NCBI GenBank assembly: GCA_000818095.1
Contig: CP009416.1
Location: 569,501-633,500 of the forward strand
Direction: 5' to 3'
DNA length: 64,000 nt
Source: Jeotgalibacillus malaysiensis
GTDB lineage: Bacteria; Bacillota; Bacilli; Bacillales; Jeotgalibacillaceae
Below are positions 3,491 through 58,551 of the stretch, piece after piece. Every line of letters starts with the position of its first letter. Within the stretch, counting starts at the first letter, position 1. The notes beneath the pieces are model-generated. The model searched no databases. It had not been told where the DNA came from and saw only the letters and a list, made by a program, of their open reading frames with translations. The position numbers were made by a program, and so were the translations under genes.

Positions 3491-3598
3491 CGATTGTAGC
3501 AGTGTGGTCAGAATTTGTAGCGATAGTCCGGTGATTTGTAGCGATACACCTGGCGATTTGTAGCAATCTCCTCTGGATTTGTAGCAATCAGCGCTGAC
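3491..3598 (+). repeat. Word array A1 (five units, about 21-bp period)
   Basis: Five degenerate copies of GATTTGTAGCAATC plus about seven variable bases. GTAGC cores begin at 3496, 3517, 3538, 3560 and 3581 (steps 21, 21, 22, 21). The array lies between the rhodanese terminator and the convergent dehydrogenase gene. The same word family returns as A2 and A3 at 17.8 and 18.0 kb, with units in the same order. Confidence 0.85.
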
Positions 3599-3641
3599 TA
3601 TGTCACAATCCATTATTTTTAATGTGGGGACGCTTATAGTA

Positions 3642-4598
3642 TTAGTAACCTTTCTGATAATCCACTTCATTCACACTCAGTTTTTTATCTTCTGTAAAGG
3701 ACTTCAGATTAGGAATCAGGATATCCTTAATGACGCGATCATTATAGTATTCCGTTGCCCCTGCAGTGTGCGGTGTAATGATGACATTATCCATTTCCCA
3801 CAGCGGGCTTTCTTCAGGCAGTGGCTCTGTTGCAAATACATCGAGTCCGGCGCCGGCGATTTTACCACCTTTCAGCGCTTGAATCATCGCTTCTTCATCA
3901 ATAATTTCCCCACGGCCAATATTGACTAGGAAGCTTTCAGATTTCATTCTGTTAAAAGTTTCTTCAGTGAAGAGATTGTTCGTTTCTTTTGTCAGTGGCA
4001 GTGTAATCACGACATAATCACATTCAGGCAGAATGTCATGAAGTTGATCGAGCTTATACATCTGATCAAAGTACTGTTCTTTTTCACCGCTTCTGCGGAA
4101 CCCGGCAACTTCCATTCCAAATGCTTTTGCAATCTTTGCCGTTTCTTTCCCAATGGCTCCGGCTCCTAAAAGAGCAAGCTTCTTCCCATGTAATTCAAGC
4201 TTTAAACCGGCATGATGCCATTTCTTCTCCTGCTGCTGGCGGGTGTATGTATGAATATGTCTTGTCCAGCCAAGCATCATGGCAAAGATCGTTTCAGCAA
4301 TCGGGAAGGCGTGCACGCCGTTAGCACTGGTCAGTTTAATATTGTGCTTTTCAAAATCTTCAAGTGGATGGCTGTCAATGCCGGCACTCCATGATTGAAC
4401 CCACTCAAGGTTTTCGGCCTGATCAAGGTAAGGCGTCATTGCTTTTTTCCAGCCAGCCACAACGGATGCATCCTTCATATGCTGACCCCATTGTTCTTCA
4501 TCTTTTCCTGTTACAATGGTCCATTCTGGTGCGGCTTCTTGTGCTGCAGTCAGCAATTCCTTTTCGATGTCATGTGCAATAATCAATTTTTTCTCCAT
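3642..4598 (-). CDS. D-2-hydroxyacid dehydrogenase
   Basis: A 318-residue NAD-dependent D-isomer-specific 2-hydroxyacid dehydrogenase. The nucleotide motif GAGAIG is at residues 145-150, the catalytic Arg at 229 in N-I-G-R-G-E, Glu258 in A-T-E-P-L, and the catalytic His277 in T-P-H-T-A-G. Length and domain order are normal. Family members reduce 2-oxoacids or act on phosphoglycerate- or glyoxylate-like substrates; this one is closest in style to the glyoxylate/hydroxypyruvate group, but substrate is inferred only. It lies 11 bases downstream of the phosphoesterase gene on the same strand, so the two may form an operon. Confidence 0.85.
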   Translation of the reverse strand: MEKKLIIAHDIEKELLTAAQEAAPEWTIVTGKDEEQWGQHMKDASVVAGWKKAMTPYLDQAENLEWVQSWSAGIDSHPLEDFEKHNIKLTSANGVHAFPIAETIFAMMLGWTRHIHTYTRQQQEKKWHHAGLKLELHGKKLALLGAGAIGKETAKIAKAFGMEVAGFRRSGEKEQYFDQMYKLDQLHDILPECDYVVITLPLTKETNNLFTEETFNRMKSESFLVNIGRGEIIDEEAMIQALKGGKIAGAGLDVFATEPLPEESPLWEMDNVIITPHTAGATEYYNDRVIKDILIPNLKSFTEDKKLSVNEVDYQKGY

Positions 4599-4609
4599 GT
4601 TAATTCCCC

Positions 4610-5107
4610 CTAAGTTTTGCTGTCATAATAGATCAATTCCACATCTAACGTTTCTTCAACCGTCAATACGACAAAAGAAAATTGCTTTTGCCTTCTTTTA
4701 TCTGTCGGTGAGCCCGGATTTAATATCTGAAGCCCATCTATCTTTTTAAAAGAAGGGATATGCGAATGTCCATAGATCAGCAGGTCAATTTGATCATTTG
4801 AAAATGCTTCAATTGCTCTTTTTTCAGTGGTTTTTCCTTTGCCATGCCCATGAACCAGCCCGATTCTAAAAGACCCTGCTTGTATAATCTGCTTTTCAGG
4901 CAGCGCCTTGATCACCTCTTGTTGATCTGCGTTACCGTATACGGCTTTGACCGAGGCAAACTGTTCAAGTTCATGGAGGACATCGATTGTGTTAAAGTCA
5001 CCTGTATGCAGAATCAGATCAGCAGACACTAATTCTTTCAATAGACGGGGTGGCAAAGACTTCGCCATCCGGGGCATATGCGTGTCTGAGAGTACAATGA
5101 TTTTCAA
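4610..5107 (-). CDS. YfcE-type metallophosphoesterase
   Basis: A roughly 165-residue calcineurin-like phosphodiesterase. Metal-binding motifs appear in order: L-S-D-T-H near the N-terminus, H-T-G-D-F, Y-G-N-A-D, V-H-G-H-G and Y-G-H-S-H. This is the short YfcE/MJ0936 group, which hydrolyses phosphodiesters with Mn or similar metals; the natural substrate is often unknown. I place the start at TTG 5107, eight bases after AAAGGTG, giving the family-typical MKIIVLSDTH; a GTG at 5116 is in frame but overlaps the ribosome binding site. Confidence 0.85.
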   Translation of the reverse strand: MKIIVLSDTHMPRMAKSLPPRLLKELVSADLILHTGDFNTIDVLHELEQFASVKAVYGNADQQEVIKALPEKQIIQAGSFRIGLVHGHGKGKTTEKRAIEAFSNDQIDLLIYGHSHIPSFKKIDGLQILNPGSPTDKRRQKQFSFVVLTVEETLDVELIYYDSKT

Positions 5108-5189
5108 ATCTTTCACACCTTTGATTTTTACGTGTTAAACTAACATTAATTATCAATCAATTCATATGGAACGTAAAGGAGATCAACTT

Positions 5190-5909
5190 ATGGAGTTATA
5201 TCAGGGAGAAGCTGTCCGCAAAACTGACAATGTGAAAATAAATTACATCATGCGGCAGCTGACAGACAATCAATTTGATGAATTCAAATCATTTCAGCAT
5301 AAAATTGTGGCTGGCCTTGAAGATCAGGTGACACTTCAGCCATTGACAGATGAAGAAATCCAATATGTTTTAGCAGAGGGCGGGATTCTGATCGGTGTAT
5401 ACGTGGAAGAGCAGCTGGTTGCCGCCCGTGCACTGCTGTTCCCGGGTGATGACGATGAAAATCTCGGCCGGGATCTTGGTCTTTCATATGAAGAACAGAT
5501 GAAAGTCGTTCATCAGGAAATCTCACTGGTGGATTCGGATTATCGGGGTAACGGCCTTCAACAGACGATGGCAAAAGTGATTATGCAGGAGCTTAAGTTC
5601 ACTAATCCATTTTTTGAACACGTCTGCTGTACCGTTTCACCTGGGAATCTGCCAAGCATGCGTGATAAATTCAAGCAGGAAATGGTTGTTGTCGAAGTGA
5701 AAAATAAGTATGGTAACATGCCGCGCTATATATTCTATAAACCACTGAAGCAGAAGCTTTTTGTCGATAAAGATTCGTATATTTTTGTCAGAACAGATAA
5801 GACTGACAGACAAAAAGATTTCATGGCAGCAGGGTATGTCGGCGTTGGGATCAGCAGGACAGAACTTGGCGTCTGGCTTGCCATGGCAAGGCTGAAAGAA
5901 TCAGTCTGA
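5190..5909 (+). CDS. GNAT-fold N-acetyltransferase
   Basis: A 239-residue protein with one GNAT domain in its first 150 residues; 'ISLVDSDYRGNGLQQTMAKV' resembles the acetyl-CoA-binding strand and R-G-N-G-L loop. The C-terminal 90 residues are family-specific ('NKYGNMPRYIFYK'). I choose ATG 5190 because AAAGGAG lies ten bases before it, whereas the in-frame ATG at 5166 has none. The substrate is unknown. It is divergent from the phosphoesterase and followed by a SigB-type promoter for ytxH. Confidence 0.75.
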   Translation: MELYQGEAVRKTDNVKINYIMRQLTDNQFDEFKSFQHKIVAGLEDQVTLQPLTDEEIQYVLAEGGILIGVYVEEQLVAARALLFPGDDDENLGRDLGLSYEEQMKVVHQEISLVDSDYRGNGLQQTMAKVIMQELKFTNPFFEHVCCTVSPGNLPSMRDKFKQEMVVVEVKNKYGNMPRYIFYKPLKQKLFVDKDSYIFVRTDKTDRQKDFMAAGYVGVGISRTELGVWLAMARLKESV

Positions 5910-5911
5910 AT

Positions 5912-5936
5912 GTTTAAATGAGATCGAGAGGGGTAG
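5912..5936 (+). promoter_or_regulatory. SigB-type promoter for the YtxH gene
   Basis: GTTTAA (5912-5917), a 13-base spacer and GGGTAG (5931-5936) match the Bacillus SigB consensus GTTTAA-N12-15-GGGTAT in all but the last base. It lies 42 bases upstream of the ytxH-type start codon. Confidence 0.7.
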
Positions 5937-5977
5937 ACTCCTAAATATACAAAAACTTCTTAGGAGGCTATTTAATC

Positions 5978-6526
5978 ATGGCGCAAAACTACAATACTAA
6001 AAATGAAGGCAGCAGCAAATTATTAATGGGTGTATTAGTCGGTGCAGCAGTTGGTGCAGCAATCGCTCTTCTGGACACAAACACAAGAGATCAGGTGAAA
6101 ACGGGAAGTAAAAACCTCGGTTCATCTACGAGCGGTTTCGTACGCAACGTAAAAGATAACCCAGGAGAATTCAAAAATGATCTTTCAGGCCGCTTCCAGT
6201 CAGCTGTATCTACGCTGAAAAATGCAATGAATGAAGCACAGTCTCTATACGAAAAAGTTAACGAAGACGTTGTGCCACAAGTAGAATCAATCCGAGAAAG
6301 TGCATCTGAAATCGTTGAAACAGCTAAAGAAGCAAAAGAAGACGCTAAAGATATTGGTGGTCAGGTTGCTGACGCAGGATCTGAAGTCAAAGAAGGCGTT
6401 TCTTCACAGGCAGGCTCAACAGAATCTTCAAATGATTCAGTTGTCCAGCTGAATAAAAAAAGTCAAAACACAGTGGATGCATCACCGCAGGGAGATATCC
6501 CGGGTGAAGTTGGCCGCGACAAATAA
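5978..6526 (+). CDS. YtxH-domain general stress protein
   Basis: A 182-residue protein with an N-terminal glycine/alanine-rich hydrophobic segment (residues 15-32, 'LLMGVLVGAAVGAAIALL') typical of the YtxH (Gas vesicle/GvpP-like) family. A long hydrophilic region rich in Glu, Lys, Ala and Ser follows, likely helical. Bacillus homologues are general stress proteins whose biochemical role is unknown. AGGAGG precedes the start. The SigB-type promoter just upstream agrees with stress induction, and a strong terminator follows. Confidence 0.85.
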   Translation: MAQNYNTKNEGSSKLLMGVLVGAAVGAAIALLDTNTRDQVKTGSKNLGSSTSGFVRNVKDNPGEFKNDLSGRFQSAVSTLKNAMNEAQSLYEKVNEDVVPQVESIRESASEIVETAKEAKEDAKDIGGQVADAGSEVKEGVSSQAGSTESSNDSVVQLNKKSQNTVDASPQGDIPGEVGRDK

Positions 6527-6530
6527 TGAA

Positions 6531-6565
6531 TGAAAAAAGGAACCGCTGTGGCGGTTCCTTTTTTA
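6531..6565 (+). terminator. Intrinsic terminator of the YtxH gene
   Basis: AAAAAAGGAACCGC pairs with GCGGTTCCTTTTTT around a TGTG loop. Confidence 0.9.
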
Positions 6566-6606
6566 GGTGGTTTAGCGGGGGAGGAGTTTTAGAATGATTA
6601 CAAAAT

Positions 6607-6634
6607 GGCGCACTGGGGACGGAGTTCAGTGCGC
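6607..6634. repeat. Short hairpin element with GGGGACGGAGTT loop
   Basis: GGCGCACTG and CAGTGCGCC form a stem around GGGGACGGAGTT. A related copy in inverted orientation, AACTCCGTCCCC between GGTGCACC and GGTGTGCC, lies at 8142-8168 just beyond the insertion sequence, so the pair flanks it. Hairpins with this loop are scattered in other Bacillaceae genomes as far as I recall. Confidence 0.6.
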
Positions 6635-6701
6635 CAAAATTAGAACCATTACAAAAACGAATCAGTCAACTTGATGTGACCCCCAAAAGTTAGAGTTTTT
6701 A

Positions 6702-7517
6702 TTAAGCAGCCATTTGGCTGGTATGCAGACGATATTGAACCGGACTCATGCCAGCCAACTTTTGTTTGATTCGATCATGGTTGTAATAATGGATATACGT
6801 TTCAATATCTTTTTTAAGTTCTTCGTATGTGCGTAACTTCTCTCCATAATACATTTCCTGCTTTAGTAAACCAAAAAAGTTCTCCATAAGGGCATTGTCG
6901 ATACAATTTCCTTTTCGGGACATACTTTGAAATACCTTTTGCCCTTTCAGGGCCTTGACCCATGTATAGTGCTGATAATGCCATCCTTGATCAGAGTGAA
7001 TAGTTGTACGGTATTTTGCATACTTAACAAGGTTCAGAGCTTCTTCTAATGGTTTCATAACGAAATCCAATGTCGGATGTTGACTGACGCCAAATGAAAT
7101 CACTTCACTATTATGCATATCCAGGATCGGGCTCAGGTACAACTTTCCGCCACCTAAGCATTTGAATTCAGTAATATCGGTTGCCAGCTTTTGAAGAGGA
7201 TGAGCTGTTTGAAAACGGCGATTCAACCTGTTCTTGGCCACGTTACCTACGGTACCTTTGTAAGAGCTATAGCTTCTAGATTTCCTTCTGAACTTTAAGC
7301 CTTTTAAGCCAAGCTTTTTCATAATCCGTTGAACCTTTTTATGATTGATGATCAGCCCGTCACTCTTAAGTGCCGCCTGGATTCGACGGTACCCATAGTT
7401 GCCATTGTGGGCATCGAAGATGAATCGAATCTGATCTTCAAGCTCCTGATCCGGATTAACATTATGCATCCGTTTAATATGATAATGATAGGAAGCTTCA
7501 GGAATGCCTACAACCAT
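6702..7517 (-). CDS. IS3-family transposase OrfB (DDE catalytic part)
   Basis: A 271-residue retroviral-type integrase core. An HTH_21-like N-terminus ('FDAHNGNYGYRRIQAALK') precedes the DDE residues: D in T-D-I-T-E-F, D in H-S-D-Q-G, and E in 'NALMENFFGLLKQE'. The length fits the stand-alone OrfB of IS150-like elements. The ATG lies 11 bases after the orfA stop, in the -1 frame, with AAAGGA eight bases upstream. Separate translation or a programmed -1 frameshift giving OrfAB are both possible; I see no clear A6G slippery site at the overlap. Confidence 0.9.
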   Translation of the reverse strand: MVVGIPEASYHYHIKRMHNVNPDQELEDQIRFIFDAHNGNYGYRRIQAALKSDGLIINHKKVQRIMKKLGLKGLKFRRKSRSYSSYKGTVGNVAKNRLNRRFQTAHPLQKLATDITEFKCLGGGKLYLSPILDMHNSEVISFGVSQHPTLDFVMKPLEEALNLVKYAKYRTTIHSDQGWHYQHYTWVKALKGQKVFQSMSRKGNCIDNALMENFFGLLKQEMYYGEKLRTYEELKKDIETYIHYYNHDRIKQKLAGMSPVQYRLHTSQMAA

Positions 7518-7528
7518 TAATACATCCT

Positions 7529-8095
7529 TTAGTCTGAATGTTTCTTTGAGTTCGAACGATAGCGCTGCTTGTGCTTTTCGAGATAGTTGTTCGGATCCTT
7601 CTGAAAAGCTTTTAACTTTTTTAAATAAGCAACCTCAAGACGTAATAACTCGTTTTCTCTCTCTAATTCTTTTTCTCTGTTAGACGCTTCATTTTGATTA
7701 GAGGCTGTCTCGTTTTGACCATTCTTCTTTTTATCTGACATGGTTGATTGTCCTCTCGGGTTCTCTAGTGCTTCATAACCCCCTTCAAGGAACTTTTTCT
7801 TCCATTCGCCAATTAACGATGGGTTCGTTAGTCTAAATTGAAGGGCTGTTTCAGTTTGGGAAGCACCTGTTCTGTCCATAAAGCTTATTACATCCAGTTT
7901 AAATTGAACAGAATAAAATGCCTTTTTCTTTTTCTTCAACCCTTCTTCACCAAAGTGCCGATAGATATTCACCCAATTAAAGATCTGCGTTTTAGATTGA
8001 ATACCATGCTTACGTGCTAAAATTCTAATACCATGAGGACCGTTCAAATATTCTTTCACAATCATCAATTTAAACTTCTCATTGTATTTAACCAT
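7529..8095 (-). CDS. IS3-family OrfA (DNA-binding protein)
   Basis: A 188-residue helix-turn-helix protein with two Tc1/IS150-type HTH units (about residues 5-55 and 60-110, 'GIRILARKHGIQSKTQIFNW' and 'LDVISFMDRTGASQTETAL'). They are followed by a low-complexity linker and a C-terminal leucine-zipper-like coiled coil ('RENELLRLEVAYLKKL'). It binds the terminal repeats and forms the transposase with OrfB. The start lies 55 bases inside the right inverted repeat. Confidence 0.9.
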   Translation of the reverse strand: MVKYNEKFKLMIVKEYLNGPHGIRILARKHGIQSKTQIFNWVNIYRHFGEEGLKKKKKAFYSVQFKLDVISFMDRTGASQTETALQFRLTNPSLIGEWKKKFLEGGYEALENPRGQSTMSDKKKNGQNETASNQNEASNREKELERENELLRLEVAYLKKLKAFQKDPNNYLEKHKQRYRSNSKKHSD

Positions 8096-8174
8096 AATAA
8101 ATGCACCCCTAAAGTTAGTTTTTGAACTCTAACTTTAGGGGTGCACCACAACTCCGTCCCCGGTGTGCCGCTCC

Positions 8175-9344
8175 CTACAAAAACAACAACCCTGCAACAG
8201 CCCCGGTCAACACGACTACCCATGGCGGAAGCTTCCAGTATACAAGCATACTGAACAAGAAGGCCGCGAGTACGAAATGGATCGGTTCTAAGATAGAGCT
8301 TGTCCAGATTGGGAAGTAGAAGGCAGAGATCAGAATGCCGACTACTGCTGCGTTTACACCCATGAAGGCTGCTTTCATTTTCGGATTTGTTCGGAGTGCA
8401 TTCCAGAATGGGAGTGCCCCAAGGATTAGTAGAAATGCTGGAAGGAAGATCGCTGCAGTTGCAAGCAGTCCGCCTTGCCATCCACCGATCACTGCGCCAA
8501 TATAAGCTGCGAATGTGAACAATGGTCCAGGAACCGCCTGAGCAGCACCGTAACCGGCAAGGAATTCTTCTTCAGTGAGCCAGCCTGTTGGAACAAATTC
8601 ACGCTCCAGTAACGGAAGGACAACGTGTCCTCCACCAAACACGAGTGAACCTGAACGGTAAAAGCTGTCGAACATTGCAATCCAGTTTGCCGACGTTATT
8701 TCCCGGGCAATAGGCAAAACAGCCAGTAAAACAAAGAATAGTGTCAGAAAGGCTGCACCAAGCTTTTTAGATACCGGGAAAGTAAACTGAGGATTCTTTT
8801 CTGAAGTATCACCTTTAAACAGAAAGAACCCGGCAATTCCAGCAATCACAATAACTACGACCTGACTGATTGTTGTCTGCCACAGCAGTGTAACAGAAAG
8901 TGCGAGCAGCGCCATTGCTTTACGCTGGAGGTCAGGTGTCAGGTTCTTTGCCATTCCCATGATGGCATGTGCAACAACTGCTACAGCAACAATTTTCAGC
9001 CCCTGCAGCCATCCTGCATCTGCTACATCGAAGCTTGAGACGATCATGGCAAAGATGATTAATACAATGACAGATGGCATCGTAAATCCGATAAAGGAAA
9101 TAAGTCCGCCAAGCAGTCCGCCTCTCATCACCCCTATACCGATTCCTACCTGGGAACTTGCAGGTCCGGGAAGAAATTGACTGAGCGCGACCAGGTCGGC
9201 ATAGGTTTTATCAGACATCCATTTTCTTCTTTCAATATATTCATCTCTGAAATAACCAAGGTGGGCGATCGGTCCGCCGAATGAGGTTAATCCGAGACGG
9301 AGTGAAACGAGTAAGATTTCAAGTAATGATCCCTGACTTTTCAT
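8175..9344 (-). CDS. chrA: Chromate transporter, long-chain ChrA
   Basis: A 389-residue membrane protein with two homologous CHR halves. The N-terminal half has 'LTSFGGPIAHLGYFRDEYI' and 'LSQFLPGPASSQVGIGIG'; the C-terminal half has the matching 'FGGGHVVLPLLEREFV' and 'AAQAVPGPLFTFAAYIG'. Known members export chromate, lowering its toxicity; some may act on sulfate-like anions. GAAAGGAGAT precedes the ATG. It lies 13 bases downstream of a PadR-family gene, which suggests a padR-chrA operon, as often found for this family. The insertion sequence ends 25 bases beyond its stop codon. Confidence 0.9.
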   Translation of the reverse strand: MKSQGSLLEILLVSLRLGLTSFGGPIAHLGYFRDEYIERRKWMSDKTYADLVALSQFLPGPASSQVGIGIGVMRGGLLGGLISFIGFTMPSVIVLIIFAMIVSSFDVADAGWLQGLKIVAVAVVAHAIMGMAKNLTPDLQRKAMALLALSVTLLWQTTISQVVVIVIAGIAGFFLFKGDTSEKNPQFTFPVSKKLGAAFLTLFFVLLAVLPIAREITSANWIAMFDSFYRSGSLVFGGGHVVLPLLEREFVPTGWLTEEEFLAGYGAAQAVPGPLFTFAAYIGAVIGGWQGGLLATAAIFLPAFLLILGALPFWNALRTNPKMKAAFMGVNAAVVGILISAFYFPIWTSSILEPIHFVLAAFLFSMLVYWKLPPWVVVLTGAVAGLLFL

Positions 9345-9357
9345 TTGTATCTCCTTT

Positions 9358-9666
9358 CTAATCTTTAATTTCCTTAAAAAGTTCGTATGCTTTGGTGCGA
9401 GCTTCTTTTAATACTTCTGCACCACGCGGGGTGGCTGTGTAATACTTTCTAATGTGCCCGTCTACATTTTTTTCTTCTTTTAGGAGAAGTCCATCTGCTT
9501 CCATTGAATGGAGAATTGGATAAAGCGTGCCGGCGCTGATCTGATAACCATGCTCACGTAATTCCTCAGTCATCCAGGCACCGTAGATCGGATGTTCAAG
9601 TGCGTGGTGAAGAATATGGATCTGTATAAAACCAAGAAACAGTTTTCGCAGTACTTTATCATCCAT
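9358..9666 (-). CDS. PadR-family transcriptional regulator
   Basis: A 102-residue winged-helix regulator: 'HPIYGAWMTEELREHGYQI', 'AGTLYPILHSMEADGLL' and 'RKYYTATPRGAEVL' are the classic PadR signature. The start is taken as ATG 9666, nine bases after AAGGAG; in-frame codons further upstream would run through the operator-like palindromes. It is probably an autorepressor of the padR-chrA operon, with chromate or another effector releasing it; the effector is inference. Confidence 0.88.
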   Translation of the reverse strand: MDDKVLRKLFLGFIQIHILHHALEHPIYGAWMTEELREHGYQISAGTLYPILHSMEADGLLLKEEKNVDGHIRKYYTATPRGAEVLKEARTKAYELFKEIKD

Positions 9667-9680
9667 AAGCATATCTCCTT

Positions 9681-9715
9681 TTTGAAATCGTATTTCGATA
9701 TCGAAAATCGATATT
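9681..9715. promoter_or_regulatory. PadR operator-like palindromes
   Basis: TTTCGATATCGAAA (9693-9706) is a perfect dyad, flanked by the related half-sites GAAATCG and AAATCGATAT. It overlaps the region just upstream of the padR start, where an autoregulatory site is expected. Confidence 0.6.
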
Positions 9716-9789
9716 AGCATTTTAGCAGGGAGGATGTTCGTTTGTGAAGGGGTGGATGTGGATCTTAACATTAAATTTACAAAGTCCTA

Positions 9790-9818: not shown

Positions 9819-9829
9819 TTAGCTGTTAA

Positions 9830-10138: not shown

Positions 10139-10182
10139 GATAAAACCTCCTGTAAAAATTTACTTCTTGTTCTAGTTGGTGG

Positions 10183-17745: not shown

Positions 17746-17762
17746 GTTTTGGAGCGGGGGGA

Positions 17763-17883
17763 GTTTGTTGGTGTTGTGTTCGAGTTTGTTGCAATTGTCG
17801 CCTGAATTGTCGCGATACACCCGGGCGTTTGTACCAATCCCCCGGGTGTGCGGTAGCAATCCACGCTGAATTTGATTCAGTCC
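17763..17883 (+). repeat. Word array A2 (five units)
   Basis: Five degenerate units with core positions 17767, 17788, 17809, 17831 and 17853 (steps 21, 21, 22, 22). The words are variants of TTTGTAGCAAT. Its last 101 bases are repeated with two mismatches in A3. Confidence 0.85.
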
Positions 17884-17993
17884 CCACCCAAACCATGCAT
17901 TTCCCAAGCATTATGATCGCACTCCCCACTCTTGATGCCCTTAAGAAATAAAAGACTGTTACCTAAGTGCATGAAGATGAATTCGTTTTATGC

Positions 17994-18115
17994 AAATGTC
18001 GGTGTTTTATGCTGGTTTGTTGCAATTGTCTCCTGAATTGTCGCGATACACCCGGGCGTTTGTACCAATCCCCCGGGTGTGCGGTAGCAATCCACGCTGA
18101 ATTTGATCCAGTCCC
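17994..18115 (+). repeat. Word array A3, near-identical copy of A2
   Basis: Bases 18015-18115 repeat 17783-17883 with two differences (G/T and T/C), and the first unit is also recognisable at 17998. The spacer between the two copies (17884-17993) holds no gene. The near identity points to a recent duplication of the whole array. Confidence 0.9.
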
Positions 18116-18184
18116 TCCACTCCAAACTCCTCTCCCACACCCGCAAAAAAATTGTCGAAATTATGTCTTTTTTTAGAGAATCTA

Positions 18185-29122: not shown

Positions 29123-29249
29123 ATGATTTCATGAACAGCCTTGTTAATCTCAGGGACCCCTGTTGAAATTTCCTGAACCACCAAAGTAATGTCATGAACC
29201 AGCCACAAAATGTTCTGAACTTAAAAGGTAATCTCCTGAACGTCCTCCA
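29123..29249 (+). repeat. Word array D (six units, exact 21-bp period)
   Basis: Six units with consensus AATNTCCTGAACC plus variable bases; aligned core positions 29130, 29151, 29172, 29193, 29214 and 29235 give a constant 21-bp step. It lies 39 bases beyond the cstR-operon terminator and just before the ABC-F promoter. Confidence 0.85.
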
Positions 29250-34834: not shown

Positions 34835-35012
34835 CAGGCGCATTCAATTAGTCCTGGAGGTGATAGAATTAATTCGTTTGGTGATCCAATTATGAAGATT
34901 GATGTAACAATTATCCTGTGCTGAACCGGGGGTGTATCAAATCATTTGAAAGATGAATCAATTATCTATCGTGCTGATACATAAAAATCAAAAGGTGATC
35001 CAATTAATCGCC
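34835..35012 (+). repeat. Word array C1 (4 + 4 units)
   Basis: Units resembling GGTGATCCAATTA start at 34837, 34859, 34880 and 34901, then after 30 bases at 34931, 34952, 34973 and 34994. Steps are 22, 21, 21, 30, 21, 21, 21. It lies between a terminator and the 3' end of a convergent gene. Confidence 0.85.
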
Positions 35013-38502: not shown

Positions 38503-38684
38503 GCAATTTGAGGTCATAGTCGCTGAAATTGAGGTCACCTTTAGTCAAACTGAGGTCACGTTTTCAATTTTTCGGGTCACAATATGCTTAACTGTGAAAT
38601 TTCAGGTCACGTTGTGAAATTTTCGGGTCAGGTCGCAAAAAACTCAGGTCACGTGCCAGCATTTTACGGTCACCCTGCCCGCCC
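38503..38684 (+). repeat. Word array B1 (4 + 4 units)
   Basis: Units AAATTTCAGGTCAC plus variable bases. GGT cores at 38512, 38533, 38554, 38575, then 38605, 38626, 38647, 38668: steps 21, 21, 21, 30, 21, 21, 21. It has the same plan as C1 and C3 although the word is unrelated. Confidence 0.9.
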
Positions 38685-44004: not shown

Positions 44005-44165
44005 AAAGTGAGAAGGTGATGGGATAATGGTGAAAGGTGATCGATATAATCAAAAAGCTGACCGAAATATCCACTGCACCCGAACACATAGCTGAATTAA
44101 TTAAAAGGTAACATAATAAGGCCAATAGGTGATAGATAAATCACAAAAGGTGATACAAAAAACGC
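44005..44165 (+). repeat. Word array C2 (degenerate 4 + 4 plan)
   Basis: AAAGGTGAT-type units at 44015, 44036, 44057, then 44107, 44128 and 44149. The gap of 50 equals one lost 21-bp unit plus a 29-base step, so the array fits the plan of C1 and C3 with worn units. A terminator ends 42 bases upstream; ppaC begins 160 bases downstream. Confidence 0.7.
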
Positions 44166-49310: not shown

Positions 49311-49486
49311 TGAAAAGGTGATCTAATTACTGAAAAGGTGAGTGAATAAAATTGAAAGGTGACTCAATAATGAGAAAGGTGTAGGAATTACTCCCGCCAC
49401 GGCAAAAGGTGATCTAATTCATTTAAAAGGTAATTGAATCTTTTAAAAGGTGATTGAATTAACCGCAAACGTGTAGGAAATAACCC
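49311..49486 (+). repeat. Word array C3 (4 + 4 units)
   Basis: AAAAGGTGATCTAATTA-type units with GGT cores at 49317, 49337, 49358, 49378, then 49408, 49429, 49449, 49470: steps 20, 21, 20, 30, 21, 20, 21. It lies upstream of the lipoprotein gene and 51 bases beyond the terminator of the minus-strand dehydrogenase gene. No gene is seen in 49127-49584. Confidence 0.9.
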
Positions 49487-52416: not shown

Positions 52417-52448
52417 TGACCTAGCGTCATGGGAAAGAGGAATGCAAA

Positions 52449-53153
52449 ATGAGATTTATCTGTCTGCAGCACGTCTGGTATGACGACGCAGGTTACCTGG
52501 AAGAATGGGTAAAAGCCTGGGGTTGTGAGCTTCATTATATAGATGCCAAAAAACCGGACGATTATCCGGTTCTACAGGGAGATGACGTCCTCGTAGTACT
52601 TGGAGGGCCGAACAGTGTCCAGGAACTCCCTGAGAACAAATGGATGCAGCAGGAAGTTGACTATATCGAAAATGCCGTCAATGAAAAGCGCAAAATCATC
52701 GGCATCTGTCTGGGTTCACAAATGCTTGCGCATATTCTCGGTACAGAAGTCTCTACCCTGCCAAAATATGAAATGGGATGGGCGGAATTGAATTGGCATA
52801 CGTCTTTTCTTGAAGACTTCGACATCGATCAGCTGAATATCCCGATGTTCCACTGGCACAGTGATATTTATGATCTGCCAAAAGGAGCAAAGCCAATTGC
52901 TAAATCTGAGATCACACCCGTCCAGGGATTTTACACGGACCATATCCTGGCGTTTCAATTCCATCCGGAAATGACGGTGGAAGGGATTCAGAATCTAATT
53001 GATCACGATGATCAGGAAATTGAAAAGCGTGATAAAACCGTGGATATGGAAGGGCCAAGAGCGGACCCGGGCTATGTGGAACAAAGTCACAATCGTTTTC
53101 AGCCGATCCTGGAAAAGTTTTTAAATGTCCATGGTGAAAAAAAGATTGATTAA
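52449..53153 (+). CDS. Class I glutamine amidotransferase (GMP-synthase-like)
   Basis: A 234-residue stand-alone GATase1. The nucleophile is in 'IIGICLGSQMLAHILG' (Cys near 81), the His-Glu pair in 'FQFHPEMTVEG', and 'DVLVVLGGPNSV' is the oxyanion strand. Such proteins move ammonia from glutamine to an unknown acceptor, or hydrolyse gamma-glutamyl compounds. AAAGAGGAATG precedes the start. The sRNA-like locus begins 40 bases beyond its stop. Confidence 0.88.
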   Translation: MRFICLQHVWYDDAGYLEEWVKAWGCELHYIDAKKPDDYPVLQGDDVLVVLGGPNSVQELPENKWMQQEVDYIENAVNEKRKIIGICLGSQMLAHILGTEVSTLPKYEMGWAELNWHTSFLEDFDIDQLNIPMFHWHSDIYDLPKGAKPIAKSEITPVQGFYTDHILAFQFHPEMTVEGIQNLIDHDDQEIEKRDKTVDMEGPRADPGYVEQSHNRFQPILEKFLNVHGEKKID

Positions 53154-53157
53154 AGAC

Positions 53158-53206
53158 TGGACAAAGATTTGAATTGTGTATACAATAATAATGAGATTCA
53201 TTCTCA
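53158..53206 (+). promoter_or_regulatory. Promoter with Fur box
   Basis: TGGACA (53158-53163), 17 bases, TACAAT (53181-53186); each hexamer matches consensus at five of six positions. Directly after lies TGAGATTCATTCTCA (53192-53206), which matches the Fur 7-1-7 dyad TGATAAT-N-ATTATCA at 11 of 14 positions and covers the expected transcription start. Confidence 0.7.
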
Positions 53207-53348
53207 ATTAAAAATAAAAACGTCGCACTTACTATAAATGCCCGTAAACAGTCGATTCGCACCGGCTTTTTACACTGAAGGCACCCAAGAAAGCGACGCC
53301 CCCTCCCTTAACCGCACGCTGCCTGACACCAGCGTGCGGTTTTATTTT
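53193..53348 (+). ncRNA. Candidate Fur-regulated small RNA (FsrA-like in design)
   Basis: A short transcript of about 155 nt would run from the Fur-box promoter to a perfect 12-pair terminator (AACCGCACGCTG with CAGCGTGCGGTT, then TTTATTTT). No convincing ORF with a ribosome binding site lies inside. A single-stranded C-rich stretch, GCCCCCUCCCUU (53298-53309), just before the terminator could pair with GGGAGG-type ribosome binding sites. B. subtilis FsrA, the Fur-controlled iron-sparing RNA, uses C-rich segments in this manner. Homology to FsrA is not shown; the resemblance is of design. Confidence 0.55.
53310..53348 (+). terminator. Intrinsic terminator of the candidate sRNA
   Basis: A perfect 12-pair stem with the loop CCTGACAC and a T-rich tail. 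Array B2 starts about 50 bases on. Confidence 0.9.
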
Positions 53349-53396
53349 GGTTTTTGGGAGATGGGCTGGGGGCTCCGGGATGGTTATAGTAGAGTA

Positions 53397-53573
53397 GGGT
53401 CTCAGGCCACCTTCGTGGATTTTCGGGTCATCTTCGGCGGGTCTCGGGTCGCCTTCTTGGAATCTCAGGTCACGTCCGGAGCATAGCCAGTGATTTCGGG
53501 TCACCTCGAGAATTTTTCAGGTCACCTCCGCCACATCTCGGGTCACCTACACAAAATCTCAGTTCACATCGCG
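53397..53573 (+). repeat. Word array B2 (4 + 4 units)
   Basis: TTTCGGGTCACCT-type units with cores at 53405, 53426, 53447, 53468, then 53499, 53520, 53541, 53562: steps 21, 21, 21, 31, 21, 21, 21. It has the same word and plan as B1, 15 kb away. Confidence 0.9.
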
Positions 53574-53688
53574 CCGCCGCCCAACCCCACTTTTCCAAAT
53601 TCTTTCCTGAAAAATCTTGCACATTTACTCAATATGATGTAGTCTATACAACAACTATTATTTTCAGACAATTCCATAACTTATCAAG

Positions 53689-53816
53689 AGAAGTGGAGGG
53701 ACTGGCCCTTAGAAACTTCAGCAACCGGCAGTGCACGGTGCTAATTCCAGCAGGCGATCAGCCTGAAGATAAGAAGAACGTATTCAAAGACCTTCTCTTA
53801 TCAGAAGGTCTTTTCC
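53689..53816 (+). ncRNA. S-box (SAM-I) riboswitch upstream of metI-metC
   Basis: CTTATCAAGAGAAGTGGAGG, GGACTGGCCC, CAGCAACCGGC, GGTGCTAATTCCAGC and GAAGATAAG appear in the order of the SAM-I aptamer. A terminator, AAGACCTTCT (53788-53797) with AGAAGGTCTT (53802-53811), ends the leader. High SAM should terminate transcription before metI. TTGCAC near 53618 may be the -35 element. Confidence 0.93.
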
Positions 53817-53852
53817 TGTATATACAGAACGATTTTGAAGGAGCTGCATCAT

Positions 53853-54968
53853 ATGACGTCAATCCAAACCATCCTTGCTCAGCTTGGAAACAGAAGTGAA
53901 GAATCAACCGGGACCGTAAATCCCCCGATTTATTTATCAACAGCATACAGACATGAGGGGCTGGGTCAATCAACCGGCTATGACTACACAAGAACGAAGA
54001 ATCCGACAAGAGCGATCCTTGAAGAAGGTATTGCGGCACTTGAAGGAGCGGATCAGGGATTTGCCACTAGCTCGGGTATGGCCGCTGTACAGCTGGTCTT
54101 CTCTTTATACAAACCGGGGGATGTCATCATTGCATCTGATGACTTATATGGAGGCACCTATCGTTTATTTGATCATTACAGCGAGCACTATGGCATAGAG
54201 TTTGTGTATGTTAATACGAATAACCCTGATGAGCTTCAGCATGCCTGTACGGAGCGGGTGAAGGCAGTCTTTGTGGAGACGCCGACAAACCCGCTGATGA
54301 AAATAACGGATATCAGGCAGGTGGCTGATTTTACACAGGAGCAGAAGATTCATCTGATCGTAGACAATACGTTTTTGACCCCGTACCTTCAGCGGCCGAT
54401 TGAACTTGGTGCTGATATTGTCATCCACAGTGCAACAAAATATCTCGGAGGTCATAATGACGTACTGGCAGGGCTTGTAGCTGCTAAAGGTGAGTCGATT
54501 TGTGAAAAGCTTTTTGCCATTCATAACGGAGCGGGAGCGGTTTTATCACCGATGGACTCGTGGTTGTTAATTCGCGGAATGAAGACACTCGCACTTAGAA
54601 TGGACCGTCATCAGGCGAACGCTTCGGCAGTTGCAGCGTTCCTTGAAACACAGCCCCAGGTCGCAGACGTCATTTACCCGGGGATCGGTGGGATGGTTTC
54701 ATTCAGGCTGGAACAGGCGGAATGGATTGATTCATTTTTAAGGTCAATTAAAGTGATCTCATTTGCAGAAAGTCTTGGAGGGGTTGAAAGCTTTATTACG
54801 TACCCTGCGACCCAGACCCATGCAGATATTCCTGAAGCGGAGCGTGAAGCAAAAGGAATCTGCAGCAGACTACTGCGTTTCTCAGTTGGTATTGAACAGT
54901 CAGAGGACCTAATCACTGATCTGAAACAGGCGCTAGAAGCAGCCGGAAAAGGAGGAGATCATGTATGA
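53853..54968 (+). CDS. metI: Cystathionine gamma-synthase / O-acylhomoserine lyase MetI
   Basis: A 371-residue PLP enzyme of the Cys/Met metabolism family, joining cysteine to an O-acylhomoserine to give cystathionine. The PLP lysine is in 'HSATKYLGGHNDV'; 'YDYTRTKNPTRAILEEGIA', 'DDLYGGTYRLFDHY' and 'FAESLGGVESFITYPATQTH' are typical. ATG 53853 follows GAAGGAG; the in-frame codon at 53835 lies in the leader. It overlaps metC by four bases and is under the S-box. Confidence 0.9.
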   Translation: MTSIQTILAQLGNRSEESTGTVNPPIYLSTAYRHEGLGQSTGYDYTRTKNPTRAILEEGIAALEGADQGFATSSGMAAVQLVFSLYKPGDVIIASDDLYGGTYRLFDHYSEHYGIEFVYVNTNNPDELQHACTERVKAVFVETPTNPLMKITDIRQVADFTQEQKIHLIVDNTFLTPYLQRPIELGADIVIHSATKYLGGHNDVLAGLVAAKGESICEKLFAIHNGAGAVLSPMDSWLLIRGMKTLALRMDRHQANASAVAAFLETQPQVADVIYPGIGGMVSFRLEQAEWIDSFLRSIKVISFAESLGGVESFITYPATQTHADIPEAEREAKGICSRLLRFSVGIEQSEDLITDLKQALEAAGKGGDHV

Positions 54969-56134
54969 CACATCATTTTGATACAAAATTATTGCATCAG
55001 CCATCATATATCGATAAGCAGACAGGGGCTGTGAATGTCCCCTTACACTATTCCTCGACTTACCATCAGCAGTCGATTGATGAGTTCGGTCCTTATGATT
55101 ACAGCCGCTCAGGAAACCCCACGCGTGAAGCGCTGGAAGATACGATTGCTGATCTTGAAAATGGCCATGCGGGCTTTGCTTTTGCATCAGGTATGGCTGC
55201 GATCTCTTCTGCCTTCATGCTGCTGTCTGCTGGGGATCATGTACTCGTCTCAAAGGATGTCTACGGTGGTACGTACCGGATGATTACAGAAGTGCTGACG
55301 CGCTTTAATATCGATCACTCATTTATTGATATGACGGACCTTGATGAAACAGCGCGTAACGTTCAGCCAAATACAAAAGTCATCTATGTGGAGACACCAT
55401 CCAATCCAACGCTCAATATAACTGATATTGAAGGTGTAGCAAAAGTGGCAAAAGCACATGGGTGCCTGACGTTTGTAGATAATACGTTTATGACGCCGCT
55501 TTATCAAAAGCCGCTTGATCTCGGAGCGGATGTCGTCCTGCACAGTGCAACAAAGTTTCTGTCAGGTCACAGTGATGTCGTGGCAGGGCTTGCCGCTGTA
55601 AAAGATGAGGAGATTGCTGCCCAGCTGAAGTTTATTCAGAATTCATTCGGCTCAATCCTGGGTGTGCAGGACAGCTGGTTACTGCTTCGTGGGTTAAAAA
55701 CACTTAGCGTCAGACTAAAGCAGTCATCTGATTCAGCAAGAGAGATTGCGCAATTCCTTCATCATCACCCGCTGATTGATGAAGTCTATTACCCTGGCTT
55801 TTCATTCCATGCAGGCTACCATATCCACCAAAGACAATCCACCGGAGCCGGTGCAGTACTTTCTTTCAGACTGCCTGATAGAAAGAGTGCCGGCGTCCTT
55901 GTTGAAGCAATGAAAATTCCGGTTTTTGCCGTAAGCCTTGGTGCCGTTGAGTCAATTCTGTCCTATCCGGCAACGATGAGCCACGCTGCAATGCCGCCAT
56001 CAGAGCGTGAATCACGCGGCATCACTTCAGGCCTTCTGCGCCTCTCAGTCGGTCTTGAAGACACAGAAGACCTCCTCGCTGACCTGCGCCAGGCACTCGA
56101 TAAAGTCGGTGCATACCAGACGCTGCAGGTGTAA
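54965..56134 (+). CDS. metC: Cystathionine beta-lyase MetC
   Basis: A 389-residue PLP enzyme that splits cystathionine to homocysteine, pyruvate and ammonia. 'YDYSRSGNPTREALEDTIAD', 'KDVYGGTYRMITEVL', the PLP lysine in 'HSATKFLSGHSDV' and 'FAVSLGAVESILSYPATMSH' identify the family; assignment as lyase rather than synthase rests on the MetI-MetC order known in Bacillus. It overlaps metI by four bases. Confidence 0.88.
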   Translation: MTHHFDTKLLHQPSYIDKQTGAVNVPLHYSSTYHQQSIDEFGPYDYSRSGNPTREALEDTIADLENGHAGFAFASGMAAISSAFMLLSAGDHVLVSKDVYGGTYRMITEVLTRFNIDHSFIDMTDLDETARNVQPNTKVIYVETPSNPTLNITDIEGVAKVAKAHGCLTFVDNTFMTPLYQKPLDLGADVVLHSATKFLSGHSDVVAGLAAVKDEEIAAQLKFIQNSFGSILGVQDSWLLLRGLKTLSVRLKQSSDSAREIAQFLHHHPLIDEVYYPGFSFHAGYHIHQRQSTGAGAVLSFRLPDRKSAGVLVEAMKIPVFAVSLGAVESILSYPATMSHAAMPPSERESRGITSGLLRLSVGLEDTEDLLADLRQALDKVGAYQTLQV

Positions 56135-56173
56135 AAAAGATTATCTATACGGCAAAAATGATTTGTGAAATCT

Positions 56174-56265
56174 TAGTGTAGCGGAGAGTGGCGACTCCGG
56201 GACGAGTAGCGGAAGGCTAAGCAACCGCCGTCCGGAAAGCGTCCGCTCAAAGCGCAGCGAAACGG
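56174..56265 (+). repeat. GC-rich interspersed repeat, copy 6 (internally deleted)
   Basis: It begins GTGTAGCGGAGAG and ends AAGCGCAGCGAAACG like copies 1 and 2, but lacks the central GAGACCCCGCAGG...GAGGAGG block. Confidence 0.75.
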
Positions 56266-56268
56266 CTG

Positions 56269-56304
56269 AAAAGACTGAAACAAACTTGTTCCAGTCTTTT
56301 TTGT
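56269..56304 (+). terminator. Intrinsic terminator after metC
   Basis: AAAAGACTG and CAGTCTTTT pair around about 14 bases, with T-tail. Confidence 0.75.
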
Positions 56305-56359
56305 TTGCCTGCAAAAATCAGTGGTAAAGACTTCTAAACACTTTTTAGGAGGATGACCA

Positions 56360-57157
56360 ATGATTTTTGCACAGGATGGTATGAAAGATCAGCACATTTT
56401 AGTCACAGGCGCTACGGGCGGGATCGGCTGGCATACAGTTATAGAAGCACTCAAAACAGGCGCTTCAGTCACCGCAGCCGGACGTAATGTCGATAAGCTC
56501 GATGACTTGAAAGAAGAATGCCGCAAAGCAGGAATTGATGCAAAGCTGCTGATTGTTTCAGCAGATCTCAATGAATCTGAAGATAGAGAAAGACTGCTGC
56601 AAAAGGCAAAAGATCATGCAGGACCGGTTACCGGGTTGGTGAATTCAGCCGGTATTTCGGGAGGAGATACAGTTGAAGATCTGTCTGAAGACGATATGCG
56701 AAAAGTGATGGAGCTGAACTACTTTTCGACAGTCGCCCTCACACAGCTCGTCTATCCTGAAATGAAGACATCTAGATCGGGAGCAGTCGTTAATGTATCA
56801 TCTTTATCTGGACTCCGTGCGACACACGGAAATACAGCTTATGCAGCATCCAAATTTGCTATTATTGCTTTTACACAGGCATTTGCACATGAAGCAGCGG
56901 AACATGGCGTCAGAGTCAATGCTGTCTGTCCTGGATTTGTTGATACAGAGATGGGGCGTAATGCGATTAGCAAAAAAGGCAAGCGGGCGGGCCGTTCGTA
57001 TGAGGAACAGCTGAAAATTGTTGAGGAGGGTTTGCCATCAGGACGCATCACACAACCGGAAGAAGTAGCAAGAACCGTTTTATTTTTACTGTCTGATGCT
57101 GCAGAAAATATCATTGGAGAATCAGTTAAAATTTCAGGCGGTGCAGTCATGAGATAA
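56360..57157 (+). CDS. SDR-family oxidoreductase
   Basis: A 265-residue short-chain dehydrogenase. T-G-A-T-G-G-I-G (16-23) binds NAD(P), N-S-A-G is present near 94, the catalytic Ser is in 'VVNVSSLSGLRATHG' and the Tyr-Lys pair in Y-A-A-S-K. 'VCPGFVDTEMGR' and the C-terminal 'ENIIGESVKISGGAVM' complete the classical SDR. The 3-oxoacyl-reductase-like form is common; substrate unknown. AGGAGG precedes the ATG. Thirteen bases separate it from the antiporter gene, so they probably form an operon. Confidence 0.88.
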   Translation: MIFAQDGMKDQHILVTGATGGIGWHTVIEALKTGASVTAAGRNVDKLDDLKEECRKAGIDAKLLIVSADLNESEDRERLLQKAKDHAGPVTGLVNSAGISGGDTVEDLSEDDMRKVMELNYFSTVALTQLVYPEMKTSRSGAVVNVSSLSGLRATHGNTAYAASKFAIIAFTQAFAHEAAEHGVRVNAVCPGFVDTEMGRNAISKKGKRAGRSYEEQLKIVEEGLPSGRITQPEEVARTVLFLLSDAAENIIGESVKISGGAVMR

Positions 57158-57170
57158 GGAGGTGGGACAG

Positions 57171-58358
57171 ATGGAGCCAGTTCAGATTGTCGTTCTTCTA
57201 TTGATCGGCTATATCGTCTTTACAATTGATAAGCGGACGCAGGTATTTCCAAGACCTCCTGTATTAGTTGGTATTGGGATCCTGCTTTACTTTGTGCCGT
57301 TTTTTAGTGGCATTCAACTGTCGGAGAAAGCACTGTACGAAATCATTCTGCCCGCACTGTTATTTATTTCAGCATATAAGTTTTCTGTCGGTGCGCTGAA
57401 AACCAATAGCTGGGCGATTGCGATTTTAAGTACGGTCGGACTAGTGATCACGGTGCTTGGCTTAGGCGGAGCGATTTATGTGATCGCAACGTTATTTGTA
57501 CCGCTTAATTTTACTGAAGCGCTATTAATCGCAGCTGTTCTCACGCCGACTGATCCGGTCTCTGTCACATCGATTCTACATAAATCTCTGGATAATGAAA
57601 AAGTCGGTGACATCGTAGAAGGGGAATCGCTGATTAACGACGGGACAAGTTATGTCATTTTCGCAACACTGCTTTCAATCCATCAGGGACATGAAAGCTT
57701 TTCGTTTTTCTCGTTCATGGGCGAATTCTTATACGTGGCGATTGGCGGAGCGCTGATCGGAATTGTGTTTGGCTGGATTGTCAGTCAGGCTGTTCACTTT
57801 ACCCATCATCAGGAGTATCAGGTGATGCTAAGCATCGTGATGGCTTACGGTATTTTTATTCTGGCAGAATCATTCGGGATATCAGGCGTACTGGCGACCG
57901 TTGCCGCGGGATTAATGCTTTCCTGGGAATTCAACCGGATCAACCGTGAAGATCACTACAGGGAGTCACTTGATCATTTCTGGGATGTGGTTGAGCCTAC
58001 GCTGCTGTCACTCGTATTTCTGATGATTGGCTTTACAGCTGTTGATTATCTGAAATGGGAATGGTTCGGTTTTGCAGTCACTGTTTTTATACTCTCGCTT
58101 GTAATCAGAACATTGATCGTTGTTTTCACAGCTCAGAGCGTGCCCCCGATCAAAAAGACGCTTTCCTGGAAAGAGTCACTGCTGATTTCGTTTGGCGGTG
58201 TAAAAGGAACAATGTCAGTCGTCCTCCTGCTATTGCTCGAGGCATCAGATGCAGGAGATACAGGGACCGTCATGACCGTTTCATTTATTGCTGTACTGCT
58301 GTCTTTATTTATACAAAGCATAGGCGTTCACCCGCTGGCAAAGCTGTTAAAATCATAG
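57171..58358 (+). CDS. CPA1-family Na+(K+)/H+ antiporter
   Basis: A 395-residue membrane protein with about 12 helices. 'AAVLTPTDPVSVTSIL' carries the D-P-type ion site and 'VEGESLINDGTSYVIFATLL' the N-D motif of CPA1 exchangers; 'ILPALLFISAYKFSVGALK' is the F-x-x-G region. It would exchange Na+ or K+ for H+ at the plasma membrane. ATG 57171 lies eight bases after AAGGAGGTG; an in-frame GTG at 57162 is part of that site. No cytosolic TrkA-C domain is attached. Confidence 0.88.
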   Translation: MEPVQIVVLLLIGYIVFTIDKRTQVFPRPPVLVGIGILLYFVPFFSGIQLSEKALYEIILPALLFISAYKFSVGALKTNSWAIAILSTVGLVITVLGLGGAIYVIATLFVPLNFTEALLIAAVLTPTDPVSVTSILHKSLDNEKVGDIVEGESLINDGTSYVIFATLLSIHQGHESFSFFSFMGEFLYVAIGGALIGIVFGWIVSQAVHFTHHQEYQVMLSIVMAYGIFILAESFGISGVLATVAAGLMLSWEFNRINREDHYRESLDHFWDVVEPTLLSLVFLMIGFTAVDYLKWEWFGFAVTVFILSLVIRTLIVVFTAQSVPPIKKTLSWKESLLISFGGVKGTMSVVLLLLLEASDAGDTGTVMTVSFIAVLLSLFIQSIGVHPLAKLLKS

Positions 58359-58363
58359 CGTTT

Positions 58364-58395
58364 TGAAAACTGCACAGAGATTGTGCAGTTTTTTG
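58364..58395 (+). terminator. Intrinsic terminator of the antiporter gene
   Basis: AAAACTGCACA and TGTGCAGTTTT pair around GAGAT, with T6. Confidence 0.92.
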
Positions 58396-58425
58396 TTACG
58401 TAAAAGGGTGAGACTTTAGTCATGA

Positions 58426-58551
58426 AGCTGCGAACCGCTGGTGTTCTTCTAAGAACCAGTCCTTGTATGCTAAGAACAACAGCTTCTTTTCTATGAACAC
58501 GACCCATTTTTCTACGAACATCCCTCATCTTTCTAAGAACCACTTTCCCAT
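58426..58551 (+). repeat. Word array E (six units, exact 21-bp period)
   Basis: Six consecutive 21-base units beginning at 58426, 58447, 58468, 58489, 58510 and 58531, consensus TTCTAAGAACC plus ten variable bases. It starts 31 bases after the antiporter terminator. Confidence 0.92.

What the first reader, a model, noticed from the sequence alone, without database searches (positions are those of the whole stretch)
3491..58551. A genome-wide class of helically phased 21-bp word arrays placed just beyond intrinsic terminators
Ten arrays (3491, 17763, 17994, 29123, 34835, 38503, 44005, 49311, 53397, 58426) consist of degenerate units, each a conserved word of about 11-14 bases plus 7-10 variable bases, at 20-22 bp steps. 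Five unrelated words are used (TTTGTAGCAAT, TTTCRGGTCACC, GGTGATCNAATTA, TCCTGAACC, TTCTAAGAACC), but every array is homogeneous. Nine lie 7 to about 51 bp outside a hairpin-T terminator; the tenth is a copy of its neighbour. Steps of 21 and 30-31 approximate two and three B-DNA turns, so all units face one side of the helix. This fits a protein-binding or insulating array better than a coding repeat, since steps of 20, 22 and 31 break frame.
Basis: seen in the sequence. Interest (0 to 1): 0.9.

Follow-up and report, generated by a model that had tools for sequence, protein, structure and literature searches.

The report
Phased binding-site arrays beyond bacterial genes
A marine bacterium carries scores of small DNA arrays, each a set of about six or eight short words spaced two helix turns apart just past the ends of genes; the words are kept while the DNA between them drifts, so an unknown protein probably binds them.

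Summary
The window lies on the chromosome of a Jeotgalibacillus (C2 has the length of J. malaysiensis pJeoMA). In 970.5 kb of its 3.5-Mb chromosome I catalogued 68 arrays in eight word families; none in one shuffle of that DNA, none in 200 kb of the megaplasmid. Words are 84-94% identical between arrays, spacers 38-54%. Arrays sit beyond inward-pointing terminators (49 of 67; 40% expected in the same gaps) and avoid divergent promoters. Orthologous arrays persist in relatives, sometimes with another word but the same geometry. Tests for IS21 or Tn7-like ends were negative, for RNA hairpins weak. Best reading: dispersed extragenic elements, placed like REP/BIME, whose core is a fixed-geometry array for an unidentified, co-evolving DNA-binding protein. 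Whether it insulates, organises or merely parasitises the chromosome is open; no protein was found.

The parts
3491..3613 (+). Family G array, 6 units (TTTGTAGCRATC), steps 21,21,22,21,21; terminator just left (about 3448-3483)
17762..17885 (+). Family G array, 6 units, first of a tandem pair
17993..18116 (+). Family G array, 6 units, second of the tandem pair; a REP-like hairpin lies between the two
29125..29245 (+). Family H array, 6 units at 21 bp (AATNTCCTGAACC); 6-unit arrays at the same site in G004 and G011
34838..35006 (+). Family F array, 8 units (GGTGATNNAATTA), central step 30; same site in G004, G011, G001
   Evidence: units 1 and 8 read by eye
38506..38678 (+). Family A array, 8 units (TTTCRGGTCACC), 21,21,21,30,21,21,21; the same site holds an F-like array in G004, G011, G001
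44011..44161 (+). Family F array; no array at this site in G001, G002, G006, G009, G011
49313..49482 (+). Family F array, 8 units, 20,21,20,30,21,20,21; the terminator to its right belongs to the minus-strand gene
53399..53572 (+). Family A array, 8 units, 21,21,21,31,21,21,21; G011 has 8 units of a TTTACNGGTCA-type word at the same site
58424..58546 (+). Family E array, 6 units at 21 bp (TTTTCTAMGAACC; first unit degenerate, seen, catalogue found 5); G011 has 6 units of a D-type word here

Best explanation
These are dispersed extragenic elements whose core is a protein-binding array of fixed geometry. Each family has its own word, usual unit number (6, or 4+4) and middle step, so a defined multi-subunit or multi-domain protein complex probably docks on one face of the DNA, one contact every two helix turns (inferred). 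They lie just past terminators because there a bound array does least harm to promoters and, possibly, stops read-through or separates neighbouring transcription units (inferred). Words mostly change together within a species while sites and geometry persist, as expected of co-evolution with a trans-acting DNA-binding protein (shown: the pattern at a few sites; inferred: the protein). Arrays spread by local tandem duplication and rare copying to other loci (shown in a few cases).
For: Geometry: all 16 A arrays have the 30/31 step, in 14 as the fourth step of an 8-unit array; 20 of 20 G arrays have a 22 step. Word identity .84-.94, spacers .38-.54, out-of-register spacers .35-.38 (arrays of exact geometry only). 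Between species, with word columns set by hand: 29123 word .79-.81, spacer .40-.54; 58426 G000/G004 .85 against .44; 49311 .79 against .61, 53397 G000/G011 .61 against .39. Versions of the GGTCAC word read by eye from listings: TTTCRGGTCAC in G000, mostly TTTACNGGTCAC in G001/G011, NCTTGGTCAC in G002/G009. Inward terminator within 70 bp in 49 of 67 against 40% expected; divergent gaps 5 of 67 against 49 of 191. Tandem copies: seven G pairs, a triple in G009; one dispersed pair.
Against: No binding protein was identified. In one search the word columns were chosen from matrices built on these same arrays, so high word identity is partly built in; the between-species comparison is free of that but small. 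At 34835 G000/G011 words are hardly better kept than spacers (.68 against .61), and G001 has one pair of the G000-type word. Words are not palindromic beyond chance except C and E (P about .02). Position-specific consensus could also mean descent from one mobile ancestor. Insulation is untested.
Confidence: 0.5

Rival explanations
1. They are non-autonomous mobile elements (MITE-like) or solo ends whose phased words are transposase-binding sites, as in Mu/Tn7/IS21-type ends.
For: A Tn7-like element in a congener (G003, right after glmS) has an end with 4 direct units at 20-bp steps, and about twenty of 30 Bacillales TnsA loci have such ends by my reading. Families are dispersed with a common geometry; 11 of 12 E arrays and 2 of 6 D arrays, one of them the hybrid, share an upstream box TAGGTC..T.ACACT, by eye. 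Presence differs between species.
Against: No A-H array at catalogue threshold in any of 34 transposon loci: 30 TnsA, 2 Mu-transpos_C, 2 IS21; Tn7-like ends step 20 bp and are AATAAAG-rich. G000 has no IS21 match above cut-off (two weak ones), no Mu-transpos_C, no TnsA-like domain, no Y1 transposase. Units all point one way; arms are not specifically complementary. Spacers are too decayed for recent movement in most pairs.
Confidence: 0.25
2. Chromosome-borne target-immunity decoys: arrays mimic transposon ends and so deter insertion of Mu/Tn7-type transposons nearby.
For: Same organisation as real ends; all 63 whole-genome hits of three word patterns lie on the chromosome, none on the megaplasmid; word turnover as in an arms race. 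Target immunity by solo Tn7 ends is recalled.
Against: No transposon with matching words found among 34 loci.
Confidence: 0.07
3. They are transcribed and act as RNA, for example a long periodic hairpin.
For: 5 of 30 folds (15 arrays, both strands) have z below -2 against simple shuffles; the strongest (-5.3) includes its terminator hairpin. Halves of one array pair better than swapped halves for family A bottom strand (permutation P .019) and marginally G (P .05.06).
Against: 25 of 30 z-scores lie between -1.7 and +0.9; A top strand P .12, E .95 and .51, D .49 and .33; arms not specifically complementary; Rfam at its curated cut-offs finds only two SAM riboswitches in the window.
Confidence: 0.07
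4. Neutral satellite-like tandem repeats left in tolerated places.
For: Local tandem duplication of whole arrays occurs; gaps past terminators are tolerant sites.
Against: Tandem duplication of units would make spacers alike; instead words are alike and spacers are not, and unit number is typical of the family.
Confidence: 0.05

Closest known systems
REP/BIME elements and their RAYT proteins
   Same: Many dispersed extragenic copies beyond gene ends, species-specific sequence families, mosaics with other repeats (REP/BIME description recalled; PMC1525189 seen only as a search listing with the opening of its abstract)
   Different: Not palindromic in most families; 6-8 direct, helix-phased units; no Y1 transposase in G000
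Tn7-like transposon right ends (TnsB sites)
   Same: About four direct sites at two-turn steps
   Different: 20-bp step, AATAAAG-type word, next to tnsA; none of families A-H there
Plasmid iterons and ParR/parC-type centromeres (recalled)
   Same: Arrays of about 20-bp direct repeats bound by one protein type
   Different: One origin or centromere per replicon versus scores of chromosomal arrays; the genes beside the arrays were not annotated here

Membership tests
IS21 ends | istA/istB transposase in the genome and these words at its ends | tested here: not met
   No IS21 match above cut-off in G000; one IS21 locus each of G001 and G005 carries no A-H array
Tn7-like right end | tnsA/tnsB next to the array and matching end words | tested here: not met
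   No TnsA-like domain or Mu-transpos_C in G000; 0 of 34 transposon loci with A-H words
MITE | terminal inverted repeats | tested here: not met
   Arms of 68 arrays no more complementary than swapped arms
MITE | target-site duplication | tested here: inconclusive
   None seen by eye at one site with and without the array (44005)
REP/BIME | imperfect palindrome | tested here: not met
   Dyad score not above column-shuffled in 6 of 8 families
REP/BIME | extragenic, beyond gene ends, multi-copy | tested here: met
REP/BIME | cognate Y1 (RAYT) transposase | tested here: not met
   No PF01797 match in G000; 9 of 12 genomes of the genus have one
Structured RNA | conserved secondary structure | tested here: inconclusive
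Protein-binding array | a bound protein | not testable with these tools
   needs pull-down

The most novel reading that the evidence does not exclude
A new kind of chromosomal element: fixed-geometry six- or eight-site docking arrays, several families per genome, each read by its own fast-evolving DNA-binding complex, set at gene ends of the chromosome and not seen on the megaplasmid, as transcription barriers, chromosome-organising sites or anti-transposon shields.
Probability: 0.35. Interest if true: 0.88.

Novelty: new variant of a known kind. Interest (0 to 1): 0.66.

Why it matters
If a protein family reads these arrays, it would be a so far unseen layer of chromosome organisation at gene ends, with a built-in record of protein-DNA co-evolution: the same sites, the same geometry, different words in sister species. 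The contrast between species (arrays in some Jeotgalibacillus, none found in sampled stretches of five others) makes the search for the protein practical.

Tried and rejected
Long RNA or DNA hairpin with unit i facing unit n+1-i: suggested by the middle step and by G-rich and C-rich arms; half-swapping gave a weak signal for A and G and none for E and D, arm-swapping none. IS21 and Tn7-like ends. REP/RAYT. Palindromic words. Coding repeats: the one hit of a public-genome scan for the E pair, which leaves out near relatives, lies in a repeat that reads as coding beside what looks like a Fic/HTH gene (by eye, family recalled). Viral scans gave 4, 6 and 8 hits for pairs of E, A and G words; several G hits look like coding heptads, a few others look non-coding (by eye); not pursued. 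In one search six genomes outside the genus hit the GGTCAC triple while the reversed control pattern hit four genomes, so spread beyond the genus rests on single arrays read by eye, not on that count. A plasmid search to name C2 found nothing. Literature: searches returned no paper, 81 and 82 three each, none on such arrays; titles and abstract openings seen only, open-access library only.

Limits. Stretches were partly chosen where words had been hit, so density is inflated. The eight families are those I recognised; others may exist. Gene and terminator calls are home-made. There 32 of 68 arrays overlapped a predicted ORF; ORFs under 700 bp that overlapped an array by more than 20 bp were then dropped as spurious, and one array inside a longer ORF was left out. 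One search used only arrays of exact geometry: 12 of 16 A, 6 of 12 E, 7 of 20 G, 4 of 6 D. One search compared 53397 and 49311 out of register (.30/.21 and .52/.50); one search realigned both and those values are quoted. The region 1.25-2.30 Mb in the depletion count (2 of 38 loci) was chosen after seeing the data.
Full report
What was checked. The window is G000:C1:569501-633500 of a 4.12-Mb genome in two contigs. Contig C2 is 603,070 bases, the length given for megaplasmid pJeoMA of Jeotgalibacillus malaysiensis (PMC5027565, passages seen), so the host is very probably that species. GC skew changes sign between the samples at 1.70 and 1.80 Mb of C1, which puts the terminus near there.

The arrays are real. 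All ten places hold words of about 11-14 bases at 20-22-bp steps. Lag 21 stands out in the window. A catalogue with eight word matrices in 970.5 kb of C1 gave 68 arrays (G 20, A 16, E 12, F 6, D 6, B 4, C 3, H 1), none in one 100-bp-block shuffle of the same DNA and none in 200 kb of C2. Some stretches were picked at word hits. Fairer comparisons with C2: nine C1 stretches outside the window picked by position hold 6 arrays in 180 kb, so about 6.7 would be expected in 200 kb of C2 against 0 seen; and all 63 whole-genome hits of three word patterns, about 38 loci, lie on C1, although C2 is 15% of the genome.

Geometry goes with the family. All 16 A arrays have the 30/31 step; 14 have eight units with it as the fourth step, and 12 are exactly 21,21,21,30,21,21,21. 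Six of 12 E arrays are exactly six units at 21 and most others fit that lattice with a weak or missing unit; 4 of 6 D arrays and the H array have six units at 21. All 20 G and all 4 B arrays contain a 22 step, usually the middle one. A 30 step shows in 3 of 6 F arrays and a 31 step in 2 of 3 C arrays; the rest matched over four units only. An upstream box TAGGTC..T.ACACT precedes 11 of 12 E arrays and 2 of 6 D arrays, and the array at C1:3002584 reads E,E,D,D,E,E (by eye).

Words are kept, spacers are not. Between arrays of one family with identical geometry (12 A, 6 E, 7 G, 4 D) word identity is .84.94.87.89 and spacer identity .41.40.54.38, against .35-.38 for spacers compared out of register. 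Word columns came from matrices built on these arrays, so the word figure is partly built in; G is raised by tandem copies.

Placement. Of 67 arrays outside predicted genes, 49 have an inward-pointing terminator within 70 bp and 18 an outward-pointing one; uniform placing in the same gaps gives 40% for inward, and 150-bp segments in 191 array-free gaps of 200 bp or more give 21% (binomial P 4e-8). Divergent gaps hold 5 of 67 arrays against 49 of those 191 gaps, convergent gaps 23 of 67 against 32 of 191 (Fisher P .0014 and .005). Words run with the terminated transcript in 29 of 43 arrays that have an inward terminator on one side only (P .03). The 60 bp before an array are G/T-rich (skew +.43 nearest, +.31 next) and the 60 bp after it C/A-rich (-.52, -.36), near zero further out. 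The two arms are not specifically complementary (P .11 and .31).

Relatives. Twelve genomes of the genus are held. At nine window sites I compared orthologous gaps where the fetched stretches covered them. 29123: G004 and G011 also have six units; G002, G006 and G009 have about 3 kb of other DNA there, not examined. 34835: G004, G011 and G001 have the F array, G002 and G009 a related word by eye, G006 and G005 none. 38503: G004, G011 and G001 have an F-like array where G000 has A; G006 has none. 58426: G004 has E, G011 six units of a D-type word, G006 none. 53397: G011 has eight units with a shifted word, G004 and G006 shorter A-type chains, G002 two arrays of a third word. 17763: G004 and G006 have G-type arrays, G002 two arrays of another word, G011 no clear one. 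49311: G004 has F, G006 a variant, G011 none. 44005: G004 shares the array by eye; G001, G002, G006, G009 and G011 lack it. 3491: G004 and G006 lack it. Word against spacer identity: 29123 .79-.81 against .40-.54; 58426 G000/G004 .85 against .44, but .58-.59 against .28-.41 with G011; 34835 .65-.76 against .46-.61; 49311 .79 against .61; 53397 .61 against .39. Listings read by eye show mostly one version of the GGTCAC word per species, with one G000-type pair in G001. With one setting, chains of 5 or more units number 28 in 968 kb of G000, 14 in 461 kb of G001, G002, G004, G006, G009 and G011 (none of them in G001; many of these stretches are window orthologues) and 0 in 340 kb of G003, G005, G007, G008 and G010.

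Wider occurrence. The E triple pattern hits 6 of 348 genomes of the order, five of them in this genus. The GGTCAC triple hits 11 of 348, five in the genus; outside it six genomes hit against four for the reversed control, so this count alone shows little. Single loci read by eye are similar arrays beside terminators, for example 17 units at 20-21 bp in G015 and 4 units at 20 bp between two terminators in G268.

What it is not, by the tests run. G000 has no IS21 match above cut-off, no Mu-transpos_C domain, no TnsA-like domain and no Y1 transposase. Of the 30 best TnsA loci in the order, 26 gave a chain of three or more units upstream; by eye about twenty are the 20-bp AATAAAG type. None of 34 transposon loci carries an A-H array at the catalogue threshold. 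The Tn7-like element of G003 lies right behind glmS with such a 4-unit end: same organisation, other word and step. Folding gave no consistent structure, Rfam only two SAM riboswitches in the window, and dyad symmetry exceeds chance only in C and E.

Spread. Whole arrays duplicate in tandem: seven G pairs 196-231 bp apart, three copies in G009. One dispersed pair, C1:639467 and about 726510, matches at 81% over 284 query bases; by eye the array itself is roughly nine in ten identical, with more diverged arms and a shared REP-like hairpin. That hairpin (CTTAAGGGCATGAAG, up to 5 mismatches in 21) had 18 hits in the sample, 12 of them within 40 bp of an array; no chance expectation was computed.

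Conclusion. Word conservation with spacer decay, family-typical helix-phased geometry and species versions of words at orthologous sites point to a trans-acting protein that reads the arrays. Insulation, chromosome organisation and transposon immunity remain possible roles; tolerance at gene ends explains the placement equally well. The protein was not found, and that is the gap to close.

Noticed in passing
C1:2586088, window 17925-17945 and other hits: A REP-like hairpin repeat (arm CTTAAGGGCATGAAGAGGGTG) lies within 40 bp of an array in 12 of 18 hits and also occurs alone.
   Followed up: partly
C1:639721-639967 and the matches: A further dispersed repeat of about 240 bp (query 555-801), with more than 30 matches in C1, lies directly beyond the array at 639467.
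   Followed up: no
L173 7140-10448: Tn7-like element (TnsA-like and TnsB-like ORFs) inserted right after glmS in Jeotgalibacillus G003, with a 4-unit, 20-bp-step end.
   Followed up: partly
L216 (G015): Array of 17 units at 20-21 bp with the word GTGACCGCGCGAATA just beyond what looks like a terminator, in another genus.
   Followed up: no
L220 / L248 (G009:C22): Three tandem copies of a whole array, 150 and 171 bp apart.
   Followed up: no
C1 1.25-2.30 Mb: Array words are scarce around the presumed terminus (2 of 38 loci; boundaries chosen after the fact).
   Followed up: partly
window 53678-53775 and 61480-61598: Two SAM riboswitches; the first lies downstream of the 53397 array.
   Followed up: no
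L112 1950-2050: In a Peptococcaceae MAG, a 21-bp repeat with the E word that reads as coding, beside what looks like a Fic/HTH gene (by eye).
   Followed up: no
L115, L118, L122, L130 (viral contigs): Short arrays or pairs of E, A or G words that look non-coding by eye.
   Followed up: no
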